Assembly (NCBI RefSeq): GCF_001971705.1
Contig: NZ_CP019327.1
Location: 3,162,001 to 3,226,000 of the forward strand
Direction: 5' to 3'
DNA length: 64,000 nt
Source: Natronorubrum daqingense
GTDB lineage: Archaea > Halobacteriota > Halobacteria > Halobacteriales > Natrialbaceae
Under the pieces are notes generated by a model that searched no databases, had not been told where the DNA came from, and was given only the letters and a program-made list of their open reading frames with translations. This document shows positions 7,516-53,412 of this stretch, in pieces. The position numbers were made by a program, and so were the translations under genes. Position 1 is the first letter of the stretch, and each line of letters opens with the position of its first letter.

Positions 7516-7567
7516 GACGGTGGGCACCGGACCCAGTGGCTGGTTCGGTTCAGGGTTGAGACCGGGT
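7516..7567. repeat. Diverged repeat, copy 1
   Basis: A 52-base stretch including CCAGTGGCTGgTTCGGTT matches 16235-16287 at about 42 of 53 aligned positions (counted by eye). Both copies lie shortly upstream of a minus-strand start codon (7435 here, 16216 at the other). Whether they are remnants of a mobile sequence or a shared promoter region is unclear. Confidence 0.45.
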
Positions 7568-7720
7568 GTTTTCGAAACGATGGATGGGCGTTTCGTCCAG
7601 TTCGAAGCTGAATACCGGACGAATCCATTTCGGATACACTCTAGGTTCGATCTTGCAGCACGTCGTTGGTAAGAACCCTATCAGATGGGTGATATATGTG
7701 TCTCTAGATGGTGATAAATC

Positions 7721-9431: not shown

Positions 9432-9646
9432 CGCAACCGATGAGCGCTGTCGACACCTCTGGAAAAATTGATATATCGGCGCGCGGCGAGCGCGTATGCA
9501 TGGCGCGCGCCAGCGGTTCGGTTCCGAGCACATGCTCGAGAGCCACGGTTCGTGTGGTCGGAACCAGTGACCATCGCGAATGCTGTCCGTTCGCGATGAA
9601 CCGATCGAAACGCGCGACCCACTTCGGCACGATCTGCGAGTAGCGG

Positions 9647-9980
9647 ATGGCCACGAACCGACGGTTCACCCTCGATCTGGCCAGTTGCCACGACGTCACG
9701 TTTCAGAACGGAACGCCAGTCGAAATCGAATCGACGATGCTCGAGCACAGCAACGGCCAGCCGGGGGAACTTCACGGTCTACAAGGCCTACCAGGACAAG
9801 CTGCGACGACACGACGGCTGGTACTCTTTCGTCGTCTACCGACCACACGGGCGCTCTGGCTGCACAGTCGTCAAAGACAAGATATGCAAAGCGTCGAACC
9901 TGCCGCTGCTCAGGTGGTAAGGTGGCGGCGATCACCGCGGGACCGAACAGGCAAAAATAGCGATTGAATCGGTCTTTTAG
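9647..9980 (+). pseudogene. Frameshifted remnant of a small haloarchaeal accessory protein
   Basis: ATG 9647 opens MATNRRFTLDLASCHDVTFQ and runs to about 9766. The sense then continues one frame over as NFTVYKAYQDKLRRHDGWYS, FVVYRPHGRSGCTVVKDK and LPLLRW, hits TAA at 9918, and reads on in the same frame as GGGDHRGTEQAKIAIESVF to TAG at 9978. One frameshift and one nonsense change thus separate it from an intact gene of about 110 codons. I recall similar small proteins in haloarchaeal accessory regions, without known function. A hairpin GGCGCGCG/CGCGCGCC (9478-9511) and a TATA-like ATATAT lie upstream. Confidence 0.6.
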
Positions 9981-9993
9981 CCGGGCCAGAAGA

Positions 9994-10381
9994 TCAGATA
10001 CGATCCTGTGGGAGCACCGCGCCGTGTTCTTGCAACTCCCCGTCGAACGAGACAAGCGTTGCGTCAACAGCGTTCACAGCGGCGAGAACAAGTGCATCCA
10101 TCGGATAGAGCAGCGTATCTTTCTGAAGCTGGTTTGCTTCGACCATATCTCATGCATCTGGGAACGTAACGGTTGTTCGGGAACTGATACGCTGTTCGAT
10201 CCGTTCAACGTGCTCACGTTCAAATTGCTTCTTTTTCGAGAGTACTGATCGAAGTTCCATAAGGTTCAGAACTGACGTATGTGTCTCATCGAACTCGTTG
10301 AGAACACGAACGGCTGTTTCAGACTTGTCGGTATCGTGAGTGACAGCAGCGACAAGAACGTTCGTGTCGAAAAATCTTCAT
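9994..10381 (-). pseudogene. Inactivated VapC-type PIN toxin
   Basis: The ATG at 10381 overlaps the antitoxin stop (ATGA). Removing one T from the run of five after ATGAAGA gives MKIFDTNVLVAAVTHDTDK, a PIN-domain start with its first Asp. MELRSVLSKKKQF supplies the conserved Glu. A TGA at 10150-10152 then breaks PDA*DMVEA, after which PMDALVLAAVNAVDATLVS and a normal C-terminus follow to TGA 9994. So the toxin carries a homopolymer frameshift and a nonsense codon. VapC toxins are Mg-dependent RNases; this copy should be dead unless the T-run is a sequencing error and TGA is read through. Confidence 0.75.
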
Positions 10382-10530
10382 AGTCGTTCGCGAACGTCAC
10401 GGACCTCTTCGACTGCATCAACGTCCACGTCGACGGCTAACTCGGAGAGTGCATCCCCGAGCGGGACCTCTTCGTCATCCTCAGGGTCTCCAGCCATGAA
10501 TTCAGCGAAGTCGTCGGTTGTGAGACTCAT
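10378..10530 (-). CDS. VapB-like antitoxin, intact
   Basis: 50 acidic residues from ATG 10530: MSLTTDDFAEFMAGDPEDDE through VDVDAVEEVRDVRERL. Its TGA overlaps the ATG of the PIN toxin by four bases, the coupling seen in vapBC operons. The toxin downstream is broken, so this is an orphaned antitoxin. It has no recognisable DNA-binding motif; assignment as antitoxin rests on position, size and charge. An upstream in-frame ATG at 10635 would add a non-acidic 35-residue leader and is rejected. Confidence 0.6.
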   Translation of the reverse strand: MSLTTDDFAEFMAGDPEDDEEVPLGDALSELAVDVDVDAVEEVRDVRERL

Positions 10531-10597
10531 ACTGTACGATTGCTGGGCTAATTCCAAAAGCCTACTGGTGGAACTGAATCGAACCAATCCCGTTGAC

Positions 10598-10850
10598 CTA
10601 CTCAGTATCAACGACAATCTCGGAGTCGATTTCAAAGGTGACGGCTCTCGTCGAGAGTGTCTCGGCGATCTCTTGGCGCTGCTCGTGAGTGATCGTCGCG
10701 CCCGAGGACCTGGCGTGTGGCTACACTCAGCTGGGCCACGGCCTCACAGGCGCTACCCACTGCTCGAGTCTTGGTACAGTCATAGAAGCGGGCTGCGCGT
10801 TCAATCGCGTCCATCCGGTGTGCATAATCACCGTCGGTTCGGATTCGCAT
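10598..10850 (-). pseudogene. Frameshifted small haloarchaeal protein (DUF7692-like)
   Basis: ATG 10850 gives MRIRTDGDYAHRMDAIERAA and RFYDCTKTRAVGSACEAVAQ. Near 10695 the sense shifts frame and continues ITHEQRQEIAETLSTRAVTF and EIDSEIVVDTE to TAG 10598. The two halves fit a small haloarchaeal family I associate, from memory, with DUF7692. One indel separates it from an intact gene of about 83 codons. It lies upstream of the antitoxin on the same strand. Confidence 0.55.
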
Positions 10851-10976
10851 ACTCGGACACACGCCCCCTCGAATCCTCGTTGTTTCGACTTACTCAACCG
10901 CGCTCATAGCCCATAATCGGGATCTCTTGTCATTCTCTCCGAGTGGTCGACGGCACCGTCGGGGCGATCGTCGCCT

Positions 10977-11013
10977 AATATGCACACGGCGTTCTCGGTC
11001 TCGTGTGCATATT
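10977..11013. other. 12-base perfect inverted repeat upstream of the ATPase-nuclease gene
   Basis: AATATGCACACG (10977-10988) and CGTGTGCATATT (11002-11013) are exact inverse copies with a 13-base loop. The repeat lies 112 bases before the start of the GHKL-nuclease gene, at the point where GC content falls. It could be an operator for the defence genes, a terminator, or the end of the inserted segment. Confidence 0.4.
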
Positions 11014-11125
11014 CAGGAAACGGGATTTGTCGACCTGCAACCCCAGGGATAAATATCGCTGGTAGCGATTCCGACTCGATATGACTGCCAAAAACATTAA
11101 TTTGTCTGCCTGACTTTTTGCTAAT

Positions 11126-13696
11126 ATGTCCAGACAAGATGAACGGCAAACCCACGAATCATTATATGATACTGCCCAAGAATTTGGTGATACGGAGGAT
11201 TCAATCGATATAGATATCAGTTTCCGTATTATAAGGCAGTTTTCCAAACAATTATACGATAACCCTCGCAGAGCCATTGAAGAACTTGTTTGTAATAGCT
11301 ACGATGCTAATGCCAAAGAGTGTTACATTCATACTCCTAATGATGTAGATGACGGGCTGTATGTCTTGGATGATGGACATTCAATGGACATGGACGGACT
11401 TGAATGGCTTTGGAAAGTAGCTTCTAGTCGAAAATCCCAGGGTGATGATGAGGATCGTGTGAGTGGTGATCGACAACAGATTGGAAAGTTTGGTGTTGGT
11501 AAGTTAGCCTCATTTGCGCTCGGATCTAGGTTAACTTATGTTGCAACTAAGAATGGGAAAACACGTATAGTCTCCGTCCATCAAGACCGATTAAAGGAGG
11601 AAACGGAAGATGATGACTTTGATGTATATGAGTTTCAAGCTAGTGAAGCGCGAGACCATTTGAATCGCTTTTTTACTAACATTCCAGACCCATGGGAAAA
11701 TAATTGGGATAGTTGGACTTTAGCAGTAGTAGAAGACATCCCAGAAAGAAATACTGGTACCGATCTGCAACCTTGGCATCTGAAAAACATGATTCGCACA
11801 GCTATACCAACTTCAACAAACTTCTCTGCATATTTAAACCAAGAAAAAATATCTGAAAGAGAGCCTAACGGCGAAGAGATATTTAATGTTGATGTAACTG
11901 AAGATGTGATGATTGATAGGATTGAGACAACATTAAAGAATTACTGGTCTTCAAGGAAGAGTATCGGCCCTGATGATGTGAGTGAAGAATTATATGAGGT
12001 CACGAGGACAACTTTCAGCGACCCTCAAGACACGAACGAAAGGATTGCTGGAATTGAGGTACCCATACTAGGTCCCGTATCTGGCCAGGGACGCTATTTC
12101 GACAGGTCTCTTACAACAGACAAGCGTCGAGAAAGAGGCTTCCAGGATCACGGTTTTCGTGTCAATGTTCGCGGAAAGCTTATTAATAAATCAGATCCGC
12201 TCTTTGGATTAGAACCATTGAGCTTTTCGACCTGGGCTCAGTTTTTAGCTGAATTTGAAATGCCCGGGCTAGATGAGGTTATTCGAGTTCAAAGGGACCA
12301 GTTAATGGATGAACCGGAGACACATATTGCAAGAAGAATTCTCAAACAAACTTTTCAAGAGGTAAGGCAACAGCAACGTAATCAGGAAGACGAAGATAAC
12401 GCTGGTATAATTAGTAGGTCTAGTTCTAGTTCTAGTTCTGGTGAAACACTACAGCGTACATTCTCTGATAGACTACAAGAGCGATCTAATCATTACGCAT
12501 ATGATGCAGTCAGTGGTCTCCATGACGAAACGGAAAAAAGGAGTTTAGATTTAGATGATATCGATATCGAAGTAAAGCCATTAAAACCTACAGACCGAGC
12601 TGTTGAGTACAATTCTGATGAACTCCAAGTGATCATTAATGAAGGACACCCCCTCATAGATACACTGAGGAGGTCGTCAGATTTCACGAGAAATATCGAA
12701 GATGCCTTTAAAGAAATACTCGCGGCAAGACTTTTGATCTATGGGTATCTGAGGAAAAATGGTGCCGACCGACTTGCTTTAGCAGCTAGTAGACAAATTT
12801 TCGATTCTGTTTTGAGAAGTGCAGCTGGTAATCTTGGAGCTGATGAGTTAGATTACCAGTTGTCTGAGTTAGACGATGCAAGTACAGTTGGTGGGACAAG
12901 ATTTGAAGAAGCTATTGTGAATATCTTTCAAAATATCGGTCTAAGTGCTGCTCAGGATGGTGGTCCAGATACTCATGATGGCGTAATAGAAATACCACAA
13001 GTGGGAGATAACTTTCGAGTGTCAGTGGAGGCAAAAGGGTCACAAGGAATTGTGTCACATTCACAGCTAAGTTTTGATTCTGTAAATCGACACAGGAGTG
13101 AGCAAAATTGCGATCAGGCGATAGTCATCGCAAGAGAGTTCCAAACCGAGGGTAGAAATGAACAAAGAAGTGCACTCTTACGCAATCTAGATCCAGAAAT
13201 TAATGACGAAGCAGTTAGCAACATATCACTGATGACAACCGAAGCTATTGAAACTTTTCTTCGACTTCATGACAGACAGCCTTTCACCTATTCTGAGACG
13301 AAACAAGTTCTTTCTAATGATGTATTACCAGAAAATCTGCCAGACAAAATTATTGATGTTTGGGAGGAGAAGCCAGATGATGAATTAACAAAGTCCATCC
13401 TCATGATTGGACATGAAATGATGGAGACTGATCCAAATAACCCACCATCAGTTGGAGCGGTAGCATACGACGAAAGAATGAGAACGAGGGATGTTACACG
13501 AGAGGAAATTGAGGAGCGGTTAGAATCACTAGATGTTCTTACGAAATCTGTGAAGATGTTGGGTGATGATAAATTTGAAATTGATGCAGATGCAGATACG
13601 ATATTAACAGAAGTCGACGATTCAAGAGAAGCAGTTGATGATGCTCTAAGTAACAATCTAATTGTTGGTGAAAATCAAGAAAGTCAAGAGAATTAA
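11126..13696 (+). CDS. GHKL/MORC-like ATPase fused to a PD-(D/E)XK nuclease domain
   Basis: 856 residues. The N-terminus is a GHKL (Hsp90/MutL/MORC-type) ATPase: N-box IEELVCNSYDANAK (Glu53, Asn57, Asp60), G1 box LDDGHSM (Asp82, Gly84), and glycine lid IGKFGVGKLASFALG (120-133). A linker region follows, including a serine run (residues 432-438). The C-terminal part has a nuclease-like core: FEEAIVNIF (Glu594/595), HDGVIEI (Asp618) and SVEAKGS (Glu635, Lys637), the D...ExK pattern of PD-(D/E)XK enzymes. The ATG 11126 fits a TATA-like CATTAATTTG about 25 bases upstream. The gene is far AT-richer than the core genome and 62 bases ahead of a DNA methyltransferase, so I infer a restriction or defence role. 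No homologue of known function identified. Confidence 0.8.
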   Translation: MSRQDERQTHESLYDTAQEFGDTEDSIDIDISFRIIRQFSKQLYDNPRRAIEELVCNSYDANAKECYIHTPNDVDDGLYVLDDGHSMDMDGLEWLWKVASSRKSQGDDEDRVSGDRQQIGKFGVGKLASFALGSRLTYVATKNGKTRIVSVHQDRLKEETEDDDFDVYEFQASEARDHLNRFFTNIPDPWENNWDSWTLAVVEDIPERNTGTDLQPWHLKNMIRTAIPTSTNFSAYLNQEKISEREPNGEEIFNVDVTEDVMIDRIETTLKNYWSSRKSIGPDDVSEELYEVTRTTFSDPQDTNERIAGIEVPILGPVSGQGRYFDRSLTTDKRRERGFQDHGFRVNVRGKLINKSDPLFGLEPLSFSTWAQFLAEFEMPGLDEVIRVQRDQLMDEPETHIARRILKQTFQEVRQQQRNQEDEDNAGIISRSSSSSSSGETLQRTFSDRLQERSNHYAYDAVSGLHDETEKRSLDLDDIDIEVKPLKPTDRAVEYNSDELQVIINEGHPLIDTLRRSSDFTRNIEDAFKEILAARLLIYGYLRKNGADRLALAASRQIFDSVLRSAAGNLGADELDYQLSELDDASTVGGTRFEEAIVNIFQNIGLSAAQDGGPDTHDGVIEIPQVGDNFRVSVEAKGSQGIVSHSQLSFDSVNRHRSEQNCDQAIVIAREFQTEGRNEQRSALLRNLDPEINDEAVSNISLMTTEAIETFLRLHDRQPFTYSETKQVLSNDVLPENLPDKIIDVWEEKPDDELTKSILMIGHEMMETDPNNPPSVGAVAYDERMRTRDVTREEIEERLESLDVLTKSVKMLGDDKFEIDADADTILTEVDDSREAVDDALSNNLIVGENQESQEN

Positions 13697-13758
13697 TCCA
13701 GGAAGCGTTCGGTTGGTCTTCATCGAAACCTTGACGTCATGGAGTGCGATGTATTAGT

Positions 13759-15084
13759 ATGAGCAGTCATATTGAGGAGGACGAACTTGATCCACTTGAT
13801 CTCTCCGAGAGAAGACAGTACACACATCGAGCACATCGATTTCCTGGAAAGTTCCACCCTCCACTGATTGCCGAAATAATTCAACAACACCCAGAGCACG
13901 AAGTAATTGGAGATCCAATGTGTGGATCTGGTACAACTGGTGTTGAAAGTGTCGTTGCTGGGAAGAACACTCTTTGTATTGATATTGATCCTCTCAGTGC
14001 ACTAATGACTCGTGCAAAGACCAAACCAGTAGATGTGGGAGCCTTTAACGAGGTCTGTGATAGAATTATTGATCAAGTTAGTGGTTTCCCAGAAAAAGGC
14101 AGTTATTCCCAAGAGAGAGCACGTCAGGAAGTTGAGCAGAATATCTCTGTTGGCCAATATGCAATACCATACAACCTTTTCCATTGGTTTGATCCGTATG
14201 TGGCTGTTGGCTATTCTCGACTTCTAAGTGAGTCTCACCACGTTCTGAAACATGAGTCTAATGAAATGAGGGATGCAGTTCATACAGCTCTTGCTGCAAT
14301 GGTGCGACAAATATCGAGAGCAGATCCAGATCCAGTAAGTGGTCTTGAAGTTACAAAGATACGGCGACAAGAACTTAACGATGGAATTACCTTCGACGTG
14401 AGCAGTTCATTTAACAATGTCTCAAATCGCCTTGCTAGGGGGTATGAGCAATTAAATTCCTTAGATGAAATTGGAGAAAGTTCTGTGATTGAAGGAGATG
14501 CGAAAAAATTCTCTGATATATGTTCCAAGGTGGATGAACCACCATCTATGATCATCACATCTCCGCCTTATTGTAACGCAATTGAATATTCCCGACGTCA
14601 TCGATTGGAATACGAATGGTTGGGTCTATTCAACAACCCTGATGTGGAAAATCAACGTAATCAGCGGATTGAAACCTCTCGGGATTTTTTCGGTAGCACA
14701 ACTCCCAAGCAAGGCACACTCCGAAATCTCCCTGAAGTACCTCATACGGATATAAAACGTGTTACAGGTGAGATTGAGGAAATGGGACATGAACGCAAAG
14801 CAAATTTACTCAGAAAATACTTCTTAGACGCCTATGACTGGATTAGCGAGATATACAAGGCACTTCCAAGTGGAGGTCTTTTTTGTATGATTATTGGGCC
14901 GAGTACCTCATACGGAAAAACGATTGATACACCAAATTACTTAAAAGAAATCACGCTTAAAGAAACTGGATTTGAACTTGTTGAAAAACCCCGACGATAT
15001 AAACTAGTGAATAATAAAATGCAATATCCTACAAATGGGGAAACGACTGAATTAGAATGTCTCTTGAAATTCAGAGCTGAATGA
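13759..15084 (+). CDS. DNA methyltransferase of the defence pair
   Basis: 441 residues from ATG 13759. AdoMet motif I is DPMCGSGTTGVE (52-63) with IDIDPLS after it; the catalytic motif IV is TSPPY at 267-271, typical of N4-cytosine or N6-adenine methyltransferases. The N-terminal RAHRFPGKFHPPL resembles the start of many site-specific methylases with the catalytic motif after motif I. The target sequence cannot be read; the middle segment (about 90-260) probably recognises DNA. It follows the ATPase-nuclease gene after 62 bases on the same strand, with the same low GC. A GTG at 13744 is in frame, but adds only MRCIS and is less likely. Confidence 0.85.
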   Translation: MSSHIEEDELDPLDLSERRQYTHRAHRFPGKFHPPLIAEIIQQHPEHEVIGDPMCGSGTTGVESVVAGKNTLCIDIDPLSALMTRAKTKPVDVGAFNEVCDRIIDQVSGFPEKGSYSQERARQEVEQNISVGQYAIPYNLFHWFDPYVAVGYSRLLSESHHVLKHESNEMRDAVHTALAAMVRQISRADPDPVSGLEVTKIRRQELNDGITFDVSSSFNNVSNRLARGYEQLNSLDEIGESSVIEGDAKKFSDICSKVDEPPSMIITSPPYCNAIEYSRRHRLEYEWLGLFNNPDVENQRNQRIETSRDFFGSTTPKQGTLRNLPEVPHTDIKRVTGEIEEMGHERKANLLRKYFLDAYDWISEIYKALPSGGLFCMIIGPSTSYGKTIDTPNYLKEITLKETGFELVEKPRRYKLVNNKMQYPTNGETTELECLLKFRAE

Positions 15085-15195
15085 AACATATGAATATATT
15101 GTATGGTGGTCAAGCACTCGAGACGATCCCATGTCTCCTATATTTTGAACACCGGAACGGAAGAATTAGGCCACTGTCAACAGCATAAGAACCAC

Positions 15196-15470
15196 TTACT
15201 CCTTTTGATGGGGTGACCACAGCCTAATATCGGGCCCATCTGGTTCTTGAAAATAGCTCTCTCGAAATACGTTGTACGGAACTTTCGCTAGGAATCGTTT
15301 GTTATCTGCCGATTCCAATGGAATTTCGTTCGATCCTCGAGTTGGCGAGTAACCTCCAGAGGCGTGAGTCCATGTTGGTCTGTAATCTTGTTTGCGAGAT
15401 CATTTGCGTGCTCTTCAGTCGGAGTTCCTTTGTGCCTACGTGAAAGGTCAGCAAAGCGCGTATACGATCA
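15196..15470 (-). pseudogene. Unidentified frameshifted gene remnant
   Basis: On the minus strand two protein-like stretches lie in different frames: YTRFADLSRRHKGTPTEEHA continuing through HGLTPLEVTRQLED, then SADNKRFLAKVPYNVF and RESYFQEPDGPDIRLWSP ending at TAA 15196. One shift near 15340 joins them. No start is preserved; in-frame stops appear upstream of about 15465. I do not recognise the family. It converges with the methyltransferase and may be a decayed part of the same island. Confidence 0.4.
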
Positions 15471-15579
15471 ACAAGTTGTCTTATGGGTGATGCATTACGA
15501 GAGTCCGGCCGGGCTATCCTACTTAAATGCTCGACCGGGTCAACCCTCGATTCATGTGCTTCACCTGGAGATCTGCGTT

Positions 15580-15705
15580 CGGAGGCGGGGGCGGGGCGGG
15601 GTAATTTTTTGGCGCTGTCCCCTTGGGGACACCCGCCAAGGGGGCGTTCGCGCGCAGCGCGAAACGACCCCGCCAGCGGTGCGGCGCGATCGCGGCGCCG
15701 ACCCC
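15580..15705. other. GC-rich cluster of hairpins
   Basis: Several stems follow each other: TGTCCCC-tt-GGGGACA (15616-15631), TTCGCGC-gca-GCGCGAA (about 15648-15664) and a GCGATCGC palindrome beyond. The stretch is much richer in GC than both neighbours and is not convincingly coding in any frame. It could be a structured RNA, a terminator cluster or the end of a small mobile sequence. Confidence 0.35.
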
Positions 15706-15811
15706 AGCCTCGAGGGATCGAATACAATCGGACTTGTGAAAACCATCTAAAACAAAAAGTTTACTTGCCGAAAAGAAGTAACGGGGTAGCGTTGCCACTC
15801 CGTGGGCCGGT

Positions 15812-16216
15812 TCACCGATCGGCGACAGCCCCGACGAACCCGGTTTCGCTGCCGCCGCCGGGCGTCTTCCAGGTCAACTCAGCGCCACGGAGTACCGTCG
15901 GATCGTTGCCCGACGTCGACCACTTCTCGAGGGCTTCAGCGGCGAGCGTCGCGACGTTCTCGAAGCTATCGTATTTCAGTCGTGAGAGATCGTATCCATC
16001 CGCATCCGCTCGGGTTCGCCGTGCTCGTCGAACTCGAGGTCGGCCCGTTCTCGGCGAGCCACTGCTGGAAAGGGGAGGACTCCGCGACGTGATCGGCCAG
16101 CCCCATCAGGTGTTGCATCCGATCGGCGTAACTCTCGATCGCGTACTCGGCGGACTCGGCGAGCGCCCGCAACTCCTCACGGTACTTCCGTTCGAGGCGG
16201 GTTCAGACACCTCCAT
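15812..16216 (-). pseudogene. Multi-frameshift remnant of an accessory-region protein
   Basis: Starting at ATG 16216 (MEVSEP), the sense passes through three shifts: RLERKYREELRALAESAEYA to FQQWLAENGPT, then DLEFDEHGEPERMRMDTISHD, then DLSRLKYDSFENVATLAAEA to TWKTPGGGSETGFVGAVADR and TGA 15812. Joined, these give about 140 residues of a coherent acidic protein. I recall similar proteins in haloarchaeal proviral regions, but cannot name it. A TATA-like TTAAAAG lies just upstream on the minus strand. Confidence 0.55.
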
Positions 16217-16234
16217 CACCCCACTGACTTTTAA

Positions 16235-16287
16235 GACGGCGGACTCCCGAAACCAGTGGCTGATTCGGTTCCGGTTTGAAACCCGGT
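16235..16287. repeat. Diverged repeat, copy 2
   Basis: Partner of 7516-7567 (about 42 of 53 positions agree, with one gap). Here it lies 19 bases upstream of the pseudogene start at 16216. The two copies roughly bracket the RNase J gene and the island. Confidence 0.45.
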
Positions 16288-41671: not shown

Positions 41672-41744
41672 GTCCTGGTAGGGTAGTGGACTATCCTCTT
41701 GGCTTGCGGAGCCAGGGACCGGAGTTCAAATCTCCGTCAGGACG
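41672..41744 (+). tRNA. tRNA-Arg(GCG)
   Basis: Acceptor halves GTCCTGG and TCAGGAC pair (one G-T) with discriminator G. The anticodon stem TTGGC/GCCAG holds loop TTGCGGA (anticodon GCG), and the T-arm is CGGAG-TTCAAAT-CTCCG. CCA is not encoded. Its 3' 49 bases recur at 43066-43114, the mark of an element inserted at the tRNA 3' end. Confidence 0.95.
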
Positions 41745-41844
41745 CTCACTTATCGCGAGTGCTTCACGTTGTTCAGCACTCGCTCTGCGTTCGGTCCTGA
41801 CGTGCCTCACGCTCACTCCGTTCGCGTGAGACTCCGTCAGGACG
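41745..41844. repeat. Left copy of the tRNA-Arg trailer repeat
   Basis: One 67-base unit (41745-41811) and a 33-base tail (41812-41844, ending GTCAGGACG). The same sequences follow the partial tRNA at 43115, where the unit is present three times. Together with the 49 tRNA bases this makes a direct repeat of about 149 bases bounding the inserted segment. Confidence 0.85.
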
Positions 41845-41869
41845 TAACGGGCTACGCCCGTCCTGCAGT

Positions 41870-42151
41870 CTTGATGCTGGACTTCGCCCGGTGGAAGTCA
41901 AGCGAGCAAAGACAACGTGGATTGATATTGATAACGCAGGGCTACGAATTCCCAAAGAAGAGAGTTCAGAAAATGAGGGCCATTGGACTGTTGGACTACA
42001 GGACAGAACAGCAAAGGCTCTTGATCGATGGTTGGAAGAGCGGAAGCAGTACGACTTGTATGAAGGGACAGATTAGCTATGGCTCACACGCTTTGGGAAC
42101 CCTTATCAGACAAGTTCTCTCCGGCAAGTGTTAGAAACACTGTTGAAATAG
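41870..42151 (+). pseudogene. Tyrosine integrase remnant
   Basis: One frame reads LDAGLRPVEVKRAKTTWIDI, then IPKEESSENEGHWTVGLQDR and YEGTD, hits TAG at 42074-42076, and continues LWLTRFGNPYQTSSLRQVLE to TAG 42149. This is the middle of a haloarchaeal XerC/D-type integrase, with the first catalytic Arg (GLRPVE) but without the N-terminal DNA-binding part, the HxxR box or the nucleophilic Tyr. The gene is truncated at both ends, and broken in the middle. It lies just inside the left tRNA-Arg repeat, so it is very likely the integrase that made the insertion. Confidence 0.8.
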
Positions 42152-42348
42152 TGGAAATCTCAACCCAATTCGGTTCAGGTTCTATCACTTATCCATATTC
42201 CATTTTCATTAACAATGATTCAATTACTATCCTTCTATAAATAGACATCTATTGAATTATGTCAATTAGAGTGGGTTATCCCAGATAATACCCACATGGC
42301 GATAACACTTATAATTCTCAAAACTAATCATGAAAATGAAATACAATA

Positions 42349-42891
42349 ATGGAAAGTGACTTCGTAAATCCATACTTCAAAAACTTCCTATCTGGGTCGG
42401 TTGCAATTTGGTTTCTCGGCTCTATTATTTCATTGGTTTTATTCTCAATTAATGTTATATTAGGATTTCTATCATCGATTATCGTTGGTTTGGGAATATC
42501 GTATTTCCTGTTCTTTACAATAGCAACTATGTGTGAAGATCTCATAGATAAGAAAGCTAATCATGATGAAATCGTAGGAAACCATGACGAGATACTCAGT
42601 GATAGCCGAGAGGATGAATTAGACAGTACGGAAGGAGCAGATAAGCCGGAAGTAGTAGGAGAATTGAACCACAGTGTTGTTGAAAACTCGAATATCATTA
42701 GTATACCTGACGAAGATGTCTCAATCTTTGAAGTCACGGATGAAGAACGGAGTGGGGAATTCATTCTACAAAACGGAAGTATAAGGGTCGCATCACCGAT
42801 GTATCAGAGAAAGTTCGGTGAAGAATGGGTGGCAGAAGCGAAAGAATATTTGGCCTCTGAAATCTCAGATAAGAATAACGGTACATTCTGA
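42349..42891 (+). CDS. Orphan membrane protein of the tRNA-Arg element
   Basis: 180 residues, AT-rich codons unlike the surrounding core. Two hydrophobic helices (about residues 14-60: VAIWFLGSIISLVLFS, ILGFLSSIIVGLGISYFLFF), then an acidic soluble part of about 120 residues ending in VASPMYQRKFGEEWVAEAKE. This is the only intact gene between the tRNA-Arg repeats. I do not recognise it. As a sole cargo gene it may protect the element or host (for example exclusion of related elements), but this is speculation. The gap 42152-42348 is AT-rich without other genes. Confidence 0.7.
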   Translation: MESDFVNPYFKNFLSGSVAIWFLGSIISLVLFSINVILGFLSSIIVGLGISYFLFFTIATMCEDLIDKKANHDEIVGNHDEILSDSREDELDSTEGADKPEVVGELNHSVVENSNIISIPDEDVSIFEVTDEERSGEFILQNGSIRVASPMYQRKFGEEWVAEAKEYLASEISDKNNGTF

Positions 42892-43065
42892 CTTACTATA
42901 CCGCTTCCAGTTGGTAGCAGCTAATATGGTACGTTGGTCCCACTCCAATACAATGGGATTTATGTACCACTGCCCGATTTATGAACTGTCACGGACGAAA
43001 ACAACCTGGTAAATAGTCAAATGCCTTTGATACGGCCATTTAGTGTGGTTGTATCCATAACGAGG

Positions 43066-52663: not shown

Positions 52664-53412
52664 TTGGCAGTGTCTAGTTAGCCCAGTTTGAGAAGCGAGC
52701 AGGCCGTAGAGTTACTTTGGCATGAAGCTCGCAGACCTGCTCAGCGAGTCCTACGCGGCGGAATTTGATGAAGCTTGGGAGCGTGAGCGGACGGCGAACA
52801 CCCTGACGGGCGTCGCCGTCCGGCTCCACGCGACCGGTTGTTCGCTTCGAGAAACACAAGCAATTCTTCGCTTGATCGGCGTTGAACGCTCTCATCAAGC
52901 AATCTGGAACTGGGTACATCAGCTGGCTGACAGCGTACCAGACCCGCCGATGGCGAAGCCATCGCGGGTCGCGGTTGACGAGACCGCTGTCAAAATAAAC
53001 GGCGAATGGTCTTGGCTGTACGCTGCAATAGACCTCGATACAAAGTTGATTCTCGATGCTCAGTTGTTCGGTCGCCACGGCACCGATCCGGCGGCTGCGT
53101 TCCTGCATAGACTCCGCGAGAAACATGATCTCTCCGAGGCGGTGTTTCTCGTCGATCAGTTTGGCTATCGGACTGCCCTTGCGCGGTTAGGATTGAACGG
53201 TCGGGTTGACTACATCGACCGAAACCTCATCGAAAAGTGGTTTCACACATTCAAAATGCGCGTCGACTGTTTCCATAACTCGTGGGTGGGCAGTCGGCGG
53301 AGCGCTCGCAAATGGATTGAACAATTCGTGCATTATTACAACCGCCAGAGACCGCATCAATCGCTTGATGGACGAACACCGGTTGAGGAGGTTCTAAACT
53401 AGACAGTGCCAA
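52664..53412 (+). mobile_element. IS6-family insertion sequence, complete
   Basis: 749 bases bounded by 16-base terminal repeats with one mismatch: TTGGCAGTGTCTAGTT (52664-52679) and the inverse of TTGGCACTGTCTAGTT (53397-53412). It holds one intact transposase whose stop codon lies inside the right repeat. I see no 8-base target duplication (left flank ATGAACAC, right flank CACTTCTA), so a rearrangement may have followed insertion. The right end is five bases from the stop codon of the propeller gene. Confidence 0.9.
52722..53402 (+). CDS. IS6-family DDE transposase
   Basis: 226 residues. An N-terminal helix-turn-helix-like part (GCSLRETQAILRLIGVERSH) precedes the catalytic DDE: Asp in RVAVDETAVKI, Asp in FLVDQFGYRTAL, Glu in NLIEKWFHTFKMR, then the IS6 C-terminal HYYNRQRPHQSLDGRTP. 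All three carboxylates are present, so the enzyme should be active. ATG 52722 is 58 bases inside the left end. Confidence 0.93.
   Translation: MKLADLLSESYAAEFDEAWERERTANTLTGVAVRLHATGCSLRETQAILRLIGVERSHQAIWNWVHQLADSVPDPPMAKPSRVAVDETAVKINGEWSWLYAAIDLDTKLILDAQLFGRHGTDPAAAFLHRLREKHDLSEAVFLVDQFGYRTALARLGLNGRVDYIDRNLIEKWFHTFKMRVDCFHNSWVGSRRSARKWIEQFVHYYNRQRPHQSLDGRTPVEEVLN

What the first reader, a model, noticed from the sequence alone, without database searches (positions are those of the whole stretch)
11126..15084. MORC-like ATPase fused to a PD-(D/E)XK nuclease, paired with a DNA methyltransferase: candidate new restriction/defence system
Two intact AT-rich genes stand 62 bases apart within a graveyard of broken accessory genes. 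The first joins a full GHKL ATPase (N-box Glu53/Asn57, DDG, GKFGVGK lid) to a nuclease core (Glu594, Asp618, Glu635-x-Lys637); the second is a TSPPY methyltransferase. MutL/MORC-type ATPases are known to occur in some bacterial restriction-modification loci (survey of Iyer, Abhiman and Aravind), but I know of no characterised haloarchaeal system with this two-protein layout. A GHKL clamp could carry the nuclease on DNA the way an SF2 helicase does in type I/III systems. That the operon is intact while its neighbours have decayed suggests selection.
Basis: partly seen in the sequence, partly recalled or inferred. Interest (0 to 1): 0.85.

Follow-up and report, generated by a model that had tools for sequence, protein, structure and literature searches.

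The report
ATP-clamp restriction pair on proviral remnant
A salt-loving archaeon carries an intact two-gene DNA-restriction system, a Hsp90/MORC-type ATPase fused to a DNA-cutting enzyme plus a protective DNA methyltransferase; the same pair recurs in distant bacteria, and here it survives as cargo inside the remains of an archaeal virus, so it is probably a little-studied, testable variant of restriction-modification and not a wholly new kind of defence.

Summary
Window 11126-13696 encodes an intact 856-aa GHKL ATPase + S5 protein with a C-terminal PD-(D/E)XK nuclease and winged helix (R). 62 bp later, 13759-15084 encodes a 441-aa TSPPY methyltransferase (M). ATPase residues are invariant in 16 homologues and the E-D-(E/D)xK nuclease core is kept in 15. 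All 16 lie near a DNA methyltransferase. The exact pair (R + alpha-order TSPPY M) recurs in Natronomonas, Kribbella, a gammaproteobacterium, two genomes from the Actinomycetota search and a viral contig. In 391 Halobacteria genomes the M subfamily occurs only twice, both times beside R. Best reading: a Type II-like restriction-modification system whose nuclease is gated by an ATP-driven MORC/Hsp90-like clamp (mechanism inferred). GHKL-nuclease fusions are not new: paraMORC3 (2008), HgiDII/BbrUII, and VcSduA (2025, both active sites required). This family has neither the HgiDII C-terminus nor a recognisable Shedu DUF4263 domain; its nuclease models closest to FokI, HindIII and BspD6I. R and M phylogenies disagree, so R changes modification partners, including methylase-linked Pbe loci. 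The 'graveyard' is largely a decayed betapleolipovirus provirus; sister islands carry SIR2, OLD or protease-like genes in the same slot.

The parts
11126..13696 (+). R: 856-aa GHKL ATPase + S5/transducer + helical linker + PD-(D/E)XK nuclease + C-terminal winged helix
11183..11845 (+). R aa ~20-240: GHKL ATP-binding domain (E53, N57, D82-G84, G120-K126), invariant in 16 homologues
   Evidence: Pfam HATPase_c_3 aa 48-162
11846..12385 (+). R aa ~241-420: S5/transducer-like part, completes Morc3/Hsp90-like module (model aa 30-423, Z 19.9)
12839..13360 (+). R aa ~572-745: PD-(D/E)XK nuclease (E594, D618, E635, K637), FokI/HindIII/BspD6I-like
13367..13645 (+). R aa ~748-840: predicted winged-helix domain
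   Evidence: fold match only, weak in specificity
13759..15084 (+). M: 441-aa DNA methyltransferase, motif I at aa 52, TSPPY at aa 267 (alpha order), predicted N4-cytosine (or N6-adenine)
13697..13758 (+). 62-bp gap between R stop and M ATG (alternative GTG start at 13744)
9570..16250 (.). Putative inserted element, bracketed by 8-bp direct repeat AACCAGTG (9562-9569, 16251-16258); not found at the matching place of the closest congener
   Evidence: boundary tentative
9597..9965 (.). Left remnant shared with betapleolipovirus-like islands of the genus (76-81% identity in the islands that keep it)
10626..11048 (.). Second left remnant shared with the same islands (68-84%)
15815..16190 (-). Remnant of provirus transcription regulator (DUF7845/phrog_3288, aa 414-539, 80-90% identity)

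Best explanation
A two-gene restriction-modification system. M methylates a specific site (probably N4-methylcytosine) in host DNA. R is an ATP-dependent endonuclease: its GHKL-S5 module dimerises on ATP binding and closes as a clamp around DNA, the winged helix and helical linker contact DNA, and the closed clamp brings two FokI/HindIII-like nuclease domains together to cut DNA lacking M's mark. Shown here: intact genes, domain make-up, conserved catalytic residues, conserved R-M linkage across two domains of life, residence in a decayed betapleolipoviral provirus. Inferred: m4C chemistry, shared recognition site, ATP gating, cleavage, antiviral benefit.
For: ATPase residues invariant in 16/16 and nuclease residues kept in 15/16. 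Exact R + alpha-TSPPY M pair in the window, Natronomonas, Kribbella, a gammaproteobacterium, two genomes from the Actinomycetota search and one viral contig, with gaps of -4 to 62 bp in the co-directional pairs and a divergent pair in Kribbella. An HMM from three M proteins recovers the held-out M partners at E ~1e-31 to 1e-32. M subfamily found in 2 of 391 Halobacteria genomes, both beside R. Fold matches Morc3 (Z 19.9) and FokI/HindIII/BspD6I (Z 14-15). Codon positions differ 0.32/0.17/0.65 between window and Natronomonas M, a purifying pattern. Precedent: VcSduA needs both ATPase and nuclease residues.
Against: No activity, motif or cleavage data. R and M trees disagree: window R groups with a Halorubrum R beside a different methyltransferase and Natronomonas R with Pbe-linked Rs, though their M proteins are 63% identical. 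One homologue (Halorubrum lipolyticum) lost the nuclease residues while keeping the ATPase. The region between ATPase and nuclease is weakly conserved. Models are AlphaFold2 monomers from a shallow alignment (16 rows or fewer).
Confidence: 0.62

Rival explanations
1. R has little or no site specificity of its own: it is a general clamp nuclease that takes its target from interchangeable modification partners (alpha MTase here, C5 MTase, or Pbe-MTase loci elsewhere), through protein contact or by reading the mark.
For: R tree and partner type do not track each other; near-identical M type sits with distant R. Related Rs sit beside alpha-TSPPY, beta-TSPPY, C5, NPPY methyltransferases and PbeA/PbeC.
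Against: Partner swapping also fits ordinary Type II evolution in which R changes site; in the bacterial pairs and viral contigs the pairing is mostly of one type.
Confidence: 0.2
2. Shedu-like defence: R senses phage DNA structure or ends as VcSduA may do, and M is an accessory or bystander.
For: VcSduA has the same GHKL + PD-(D/E)XK layout and works without a methyltransferase.
Against: No DUF4263 match in any of 16 members at E<=1; every R lies near an MTase gene.
Confidence: 0.1
3. Cargo of a dead provirus kept by chance or by addiction (post-segregational killing), without current antiviral benefit.
For: Provirus around it is decayed; present in 1 of 10 genomes of the genus.
Against: Both frames intact with a purifying codon pattern in M; cargo in sister islands includes known defence families.
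Confidence: 0.08

Closest known systems
paraMORC3 (Iyer, Abhiman, Aravind 2008, PMC2292703)
   Same: GHKL + S5 with C-terminal restriction-fold nuclease carrying E-D-ExK, in or near RM loci, laterally mobile
   Different: Described mainly in proteobacteria and Bacteroidetes, nuclease said to be nearest RecB family; a subset has no conserved neighbours. No paraMORC3 sequence was held here, so kinship was not tested. Later equated with Shedu type I-D, whose DUF4263 is not recognised here
VcSduA, Shedu type I-D (PMC12137116, 2025)
   Same: N-terminal GHKL ATPase plus PD-(D/E)XK nuclease; both sites needed for anti-phage activity
   Different: Reported as a single-gene defence; DUF4263 nuclease; our family shows no DUF4263 match and has a methyltransferase partner
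BbrUII/HgiDII restriction enzymes (NCBIfam NF050001)
   Same: GHKL + S5 N-terminal half is homologous (profile comparison E=2.4e-23); named restriction enzymes; genuine members occur in haloarchaea
   Different: C-terminal half not alignable (probability ~0); HgiDII-type partner is a 5mC methyltransferase for GTCGAC; R scores 58.8 against a cut-off of 550
PbeABCD / CxC-DndE systems (PMC6459918, PMC10853773)
   Same: In five haloarchaeal genomes an R homologue stands beside an MTase locus of this kind; PbeA and PbeC confirmed by profile in one, matching genes seen in three more, MTase but no confirmed PbeA/C in Salarchaeum
   Different: The window itself has neither PbeA nor PbeC; a GHKL nuclease is not one of PbeA-D
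FokI / HindIII / Nt.BspD6I nuclease domains
   Same: Best structural matches of the C-terminal nuclease (Z 14-15)
   Different: Those enzymes have no GHKL ATPase and are not ATP-dependent

Membership tests
Restriction-modification system (Type II-like) | Endonuclease gene linked to a DNA methyltransferase gene | tested here: met
   Window pair 62 bp apart; all 16 homologue loci near an MTase
Restriction-modification system (Type II-like) | Methyltransferase protects the site that the nuclease attacks | not testable with these tools
   Needs modification-aware sequencing and cleavage assays
MORC family | GHKL + S5 ATPase module | tested here: met
   Pfam HATPase_c_3; Morc3 best fold match Z 19.9, within about 1.5 of Hsp90
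MORC family | GhXhhpXXRhl motif in the S5 domain | tested here: not met
   0 of 16 members match the motif
paraMORC3 | GHKL + S5 + C-terminal RE-fold nuclease with E-D-ExK | tested here: met
   E594, D618, (E/D)635, K637 in 15/16; fold match to restriction nucleases
paraMORC3 | Sequence kinship to the named paraMORC3 proteins | not tested
   No paraMORC3 reference sequence was at hand
Shedu type I-D (VcSduA) | DUF4263 nuclease domain | tested here: not met
   No DUF4263 match at E<=1 in any of 16 members; a remote relation is not excluded
Shedu type I-D (VcSduA) | N-terminal GHKL ATPase fused to PD-(D/E)XK nuclease | tested here: met
BbrUII/HgiDII (NF050001) | Whole-protein score at least 550 bits | tested here: not met
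   58.8 bits, aa 29-166 only
BbrUII/HgiDII (NF050001) | Homologous C-terminal half | tested here: not met
   Profile comparison probability 0.04%, whereas the ATPase halves align at E=2.4e-23
PbeABCD | PbeA and PbeC genes in the locus | tested here: not met
   No such ORF between 9.4 and 17 kb of the window; present only beside some homologues
Betapleolipovirus provirus (surroundings) | Virus regulator gene (DUF7845/phrog_3288) and NTPase gene (phrog_1979) | tested here: inconclusive
   Regulator remnant present at 15815-16190; NTPase and phrog_3526 genes absent from the window but present in sister islands

The most novel reading that the evidence does not exclude
R is a portable ATP-clamp nuclease module that plugs into different modification systems (m4C, 5mC, methylase-linked Pbe) across archaea and bacteria and is spread as defence cargo of betapleolipoviral proviruses, with target choice set by the partner and not by R itself.
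Probability: 0.18. Interest if true: 0.8.

Novelty: new variant of a known kind. Interest (0 to 1): 0.56.

Why it matters
If the pair restricts, it would be a compact system in which an Hsp90/MORC-type ATP clamp gates a FokI/HindIII-like nuclease. That would give a direct experimental handle on how prokaryotic MORC-like ATPases act on DNA, a question open since 2008, with haloarchaeal genetic hosts available. It would also show archaeal pleolipoviral proviruses as carriers of restriction-modification cargo.

Tried and rejected
First genome-contig scan with the single protein found no relative; the alignment query did. Viral contigs gave no relative of the haloarchaeal set but four of the wider set. 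Plasmid and phage collections hold almost no close relatives of R. Sequence search of solved structures with R or its C-terminal profile gave only Hsp90 ATPase or chance matches. The Priestia plasmid hit is a nuclease-only restriction gene match without GHKL in the matched stretch. Rejected: membership in HgiDII/BbrUII, in MORC proper, in Shedu by DUF4263. The 8-bp direct repeat alone is weak (a second 8-mer repeat occurs in the same intervals); it is used only together with the congener junction.

Full report
Observation. R (11126-13696) has 856 aa, M (13759-15084) 441 aa, 62 bp apart. Both are AT-rich (41% GC in a 59% GC window).

R domain make-up. Pfam finds HATPase_c_3 at aa 48-162 (1.5e-18). 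An AlphaFold2 model of the whole protein (pLDDT 74.7, pTM 0.49) matches Morc3 best (Z 19.9, 302 residues, rmsd 3.9), followed by Hsp90, over aa 30-423 (Foldseek). A separate model of aa 492-856 (pLDDT 83.7) matches FokI, HindIII and Nt.BspD6I (Z 13.7-14.8, about 155-160 residues), clearly above the rest, over the nuclease, and winged-helix proteins over the C-terminal part. So R is GHKL ATPase, S5-like transducer, helical linker, PD-(D/E)XK nuclease, winged helix. Pfam Mrr_cat supports the nuclease in 5 of 16 members, best 6.7e-06.

Family. Full-length homologues were found in 9 of 391 Halobacteria genomes (the window's own among them), then in a halobacterial MAG, Kribbella, a gammaproteobacterium, further bacterial genomes and IMG/VR contigs. 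In an alignment of 16, E53, N57, D82, G84, G120, G123, G125, K126 are invariant. E594, D618 (one E), E/D635 and K637 are kept in 15; Halorubrum lipolyticum has lost all four nuclease residues. A gammaproteobacterial genome has an R ORF that ends just before the ExK.

Partners. Every one of the 16 lies near a DNA methyltransferase. The layout of the window (R then alpha-order TSPPY M) recurs in Natronomonas sp. LN261 (57-bp gap), the gammaproteobacterial MAG (4-bp overlap), two genomes from the search of Kribbella's class (1-bp overlap, 1-bp gap) and a viral contig (4-bp overlap); in Kribbella the two genes are divergent. An HMM built from three M proteins recovers five held-out M proteins at 1e-31 to 1e-32. 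M relatives at E<1e-30 occur in 2 of 391 Halobacteria genomes, both beside R. Other Rs sit with a C5 methyltransferase and a second REase-like gene, with Vsr + C5, with an NPPY methyltransferase, or with a beta-order TSPPY methyltransferase. Next to the Halogranum R, neighbours score as PbeA (5.6e-235) and PbeC (E=0) in PADLOC; look-alike genes stand beside the Halovivax and two Halorubrum Rs. Solitary PbeAC near methyltransferases was noted by its discoverers (PMC6459918).

Discordance. Window M and Natronomonas M are 63% identical, but their Rs are 35% identical and not sisters: window R groups with the Halorubrum lipolyticum R (support 98/93), Natronomonas R with Pbe-type Rs (100/99). R and M therefore reassort. 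This is compatible with ordinary Type II evolution but also with a partner-specified nuclease.

Known relatives. Iyer et al. 2008 described MORC and paraMORC ATPases in RM loci; paraMORC3 carries a C-terminal RE-fold nuclease with E-D-ExK, and they proposed DNA looping. VcSduA is a GHKL + DUF4263 protein whose ATPase (E27A) and nuclease (K557A) mutants lose defence. HgiDII/BbrUII restriction enzymes share the GHKL-S5 half (E=2.4e-23) but not the C-terminal half; true members exist in haloarchaea (790.8 bits against a cut-off of 550). The MORC S5 motif is absent. No DUF4263 match was found. The family is thus a sister variant within a known architectural class.

Surroundings. The DNA left of 9569 is 95% identical to a congener that lacks the insert there. 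Window 9597-9965, 10626-11048 and 15548-16190 match islands in most other genomes of the genus. Those islands carry phrog_3526, phrog_1979 and phrog_3288/DUF7845 genes; the phrog_1979 protein is 52% identical to HRPV-3 ORF5 and the regulator matches HRPV-3 ORF9, in the gene order of that betapleolipovirus. Window 15815-16190 is the tail of the regulator. Between the shared flanks each island holds a different, mostly AT-rich cargo: SIR2 (PDC-S25, 5.8e-86), an OLD-like ATPase (2.4e-25), a PDC-S45 protein (3e-29), or unknowns. The pair is best seen as cargo retained after its provirus decayed; presence in 1 of 10 genomes of the genus fits recent gain.

Mechanism. Inferred: ATP-dependent dimerisation of the GHKL module closes a clamp on DNA and licenses a nuclease dimer; M's mark blocks it. 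No step of this was shown here. m4C is predicted from TSPPY, not shown.

Verdict. Observation confirmed, interpretation partly supported, new variant of a known kind.

Noticed in passing
window 9570-16258; L098, L099, L100, L102, L103, L105, L106: Betapleolipovirus-like proviral islands of the genus share a variable, mostly AT-rich cargo slot between left-hand virus genes and the DUF7845 regulator, holding SIR2, OLD-like, PDC-S45 or unknown genes.
   Followed up: partly
L032 10911-17725, L033, L037, L038; L064 7373-14511: R homologues beside methylase-linked Pbe-type loci (PbeA, PbeC, TSPPY MTase, ~200-aa protein, deaminase-like protein); in the Salarchaeum plasmid the MTase and two small genes are present but PbeA/C were not confirmed.
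   Followed up: partly
L034 7693-10167: Halorubrum lipolyticum R homologue keeps all ATPase residues but has lost all nuclease residues, next to a 776-aa NPPY methyltransferase.
   Followed up: no
L060 1645-3600: Gammaproteobacterial R ORF ends just before the ExK, with its M gene downstream; decay or assembly error.
   Followed up: no
window 7533-7650: About 118-bp insertion absent from the congener (L104) with a repeat containing CCAGTGGCTGGTTCGGTTC; related copies near 16234-16287 and in L104, L098.
   Followed up: partly
window 41672-43000: tRNA-Arg gene followed by an AT-rich stretch (39% GC) with a 180-aa ORF, a possible integration site.
   Followed up: no
window 52722-53402: 226-aa ORF that looks like an IS6-type transposase, within a lower-GC stretch.
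   Followed up: no
L013 1468-3426: Genuine BbrUII/HgiDII-family GHKL restriction enzyme in a haloarchaeon (790.8 bits).
   Followed up: yes
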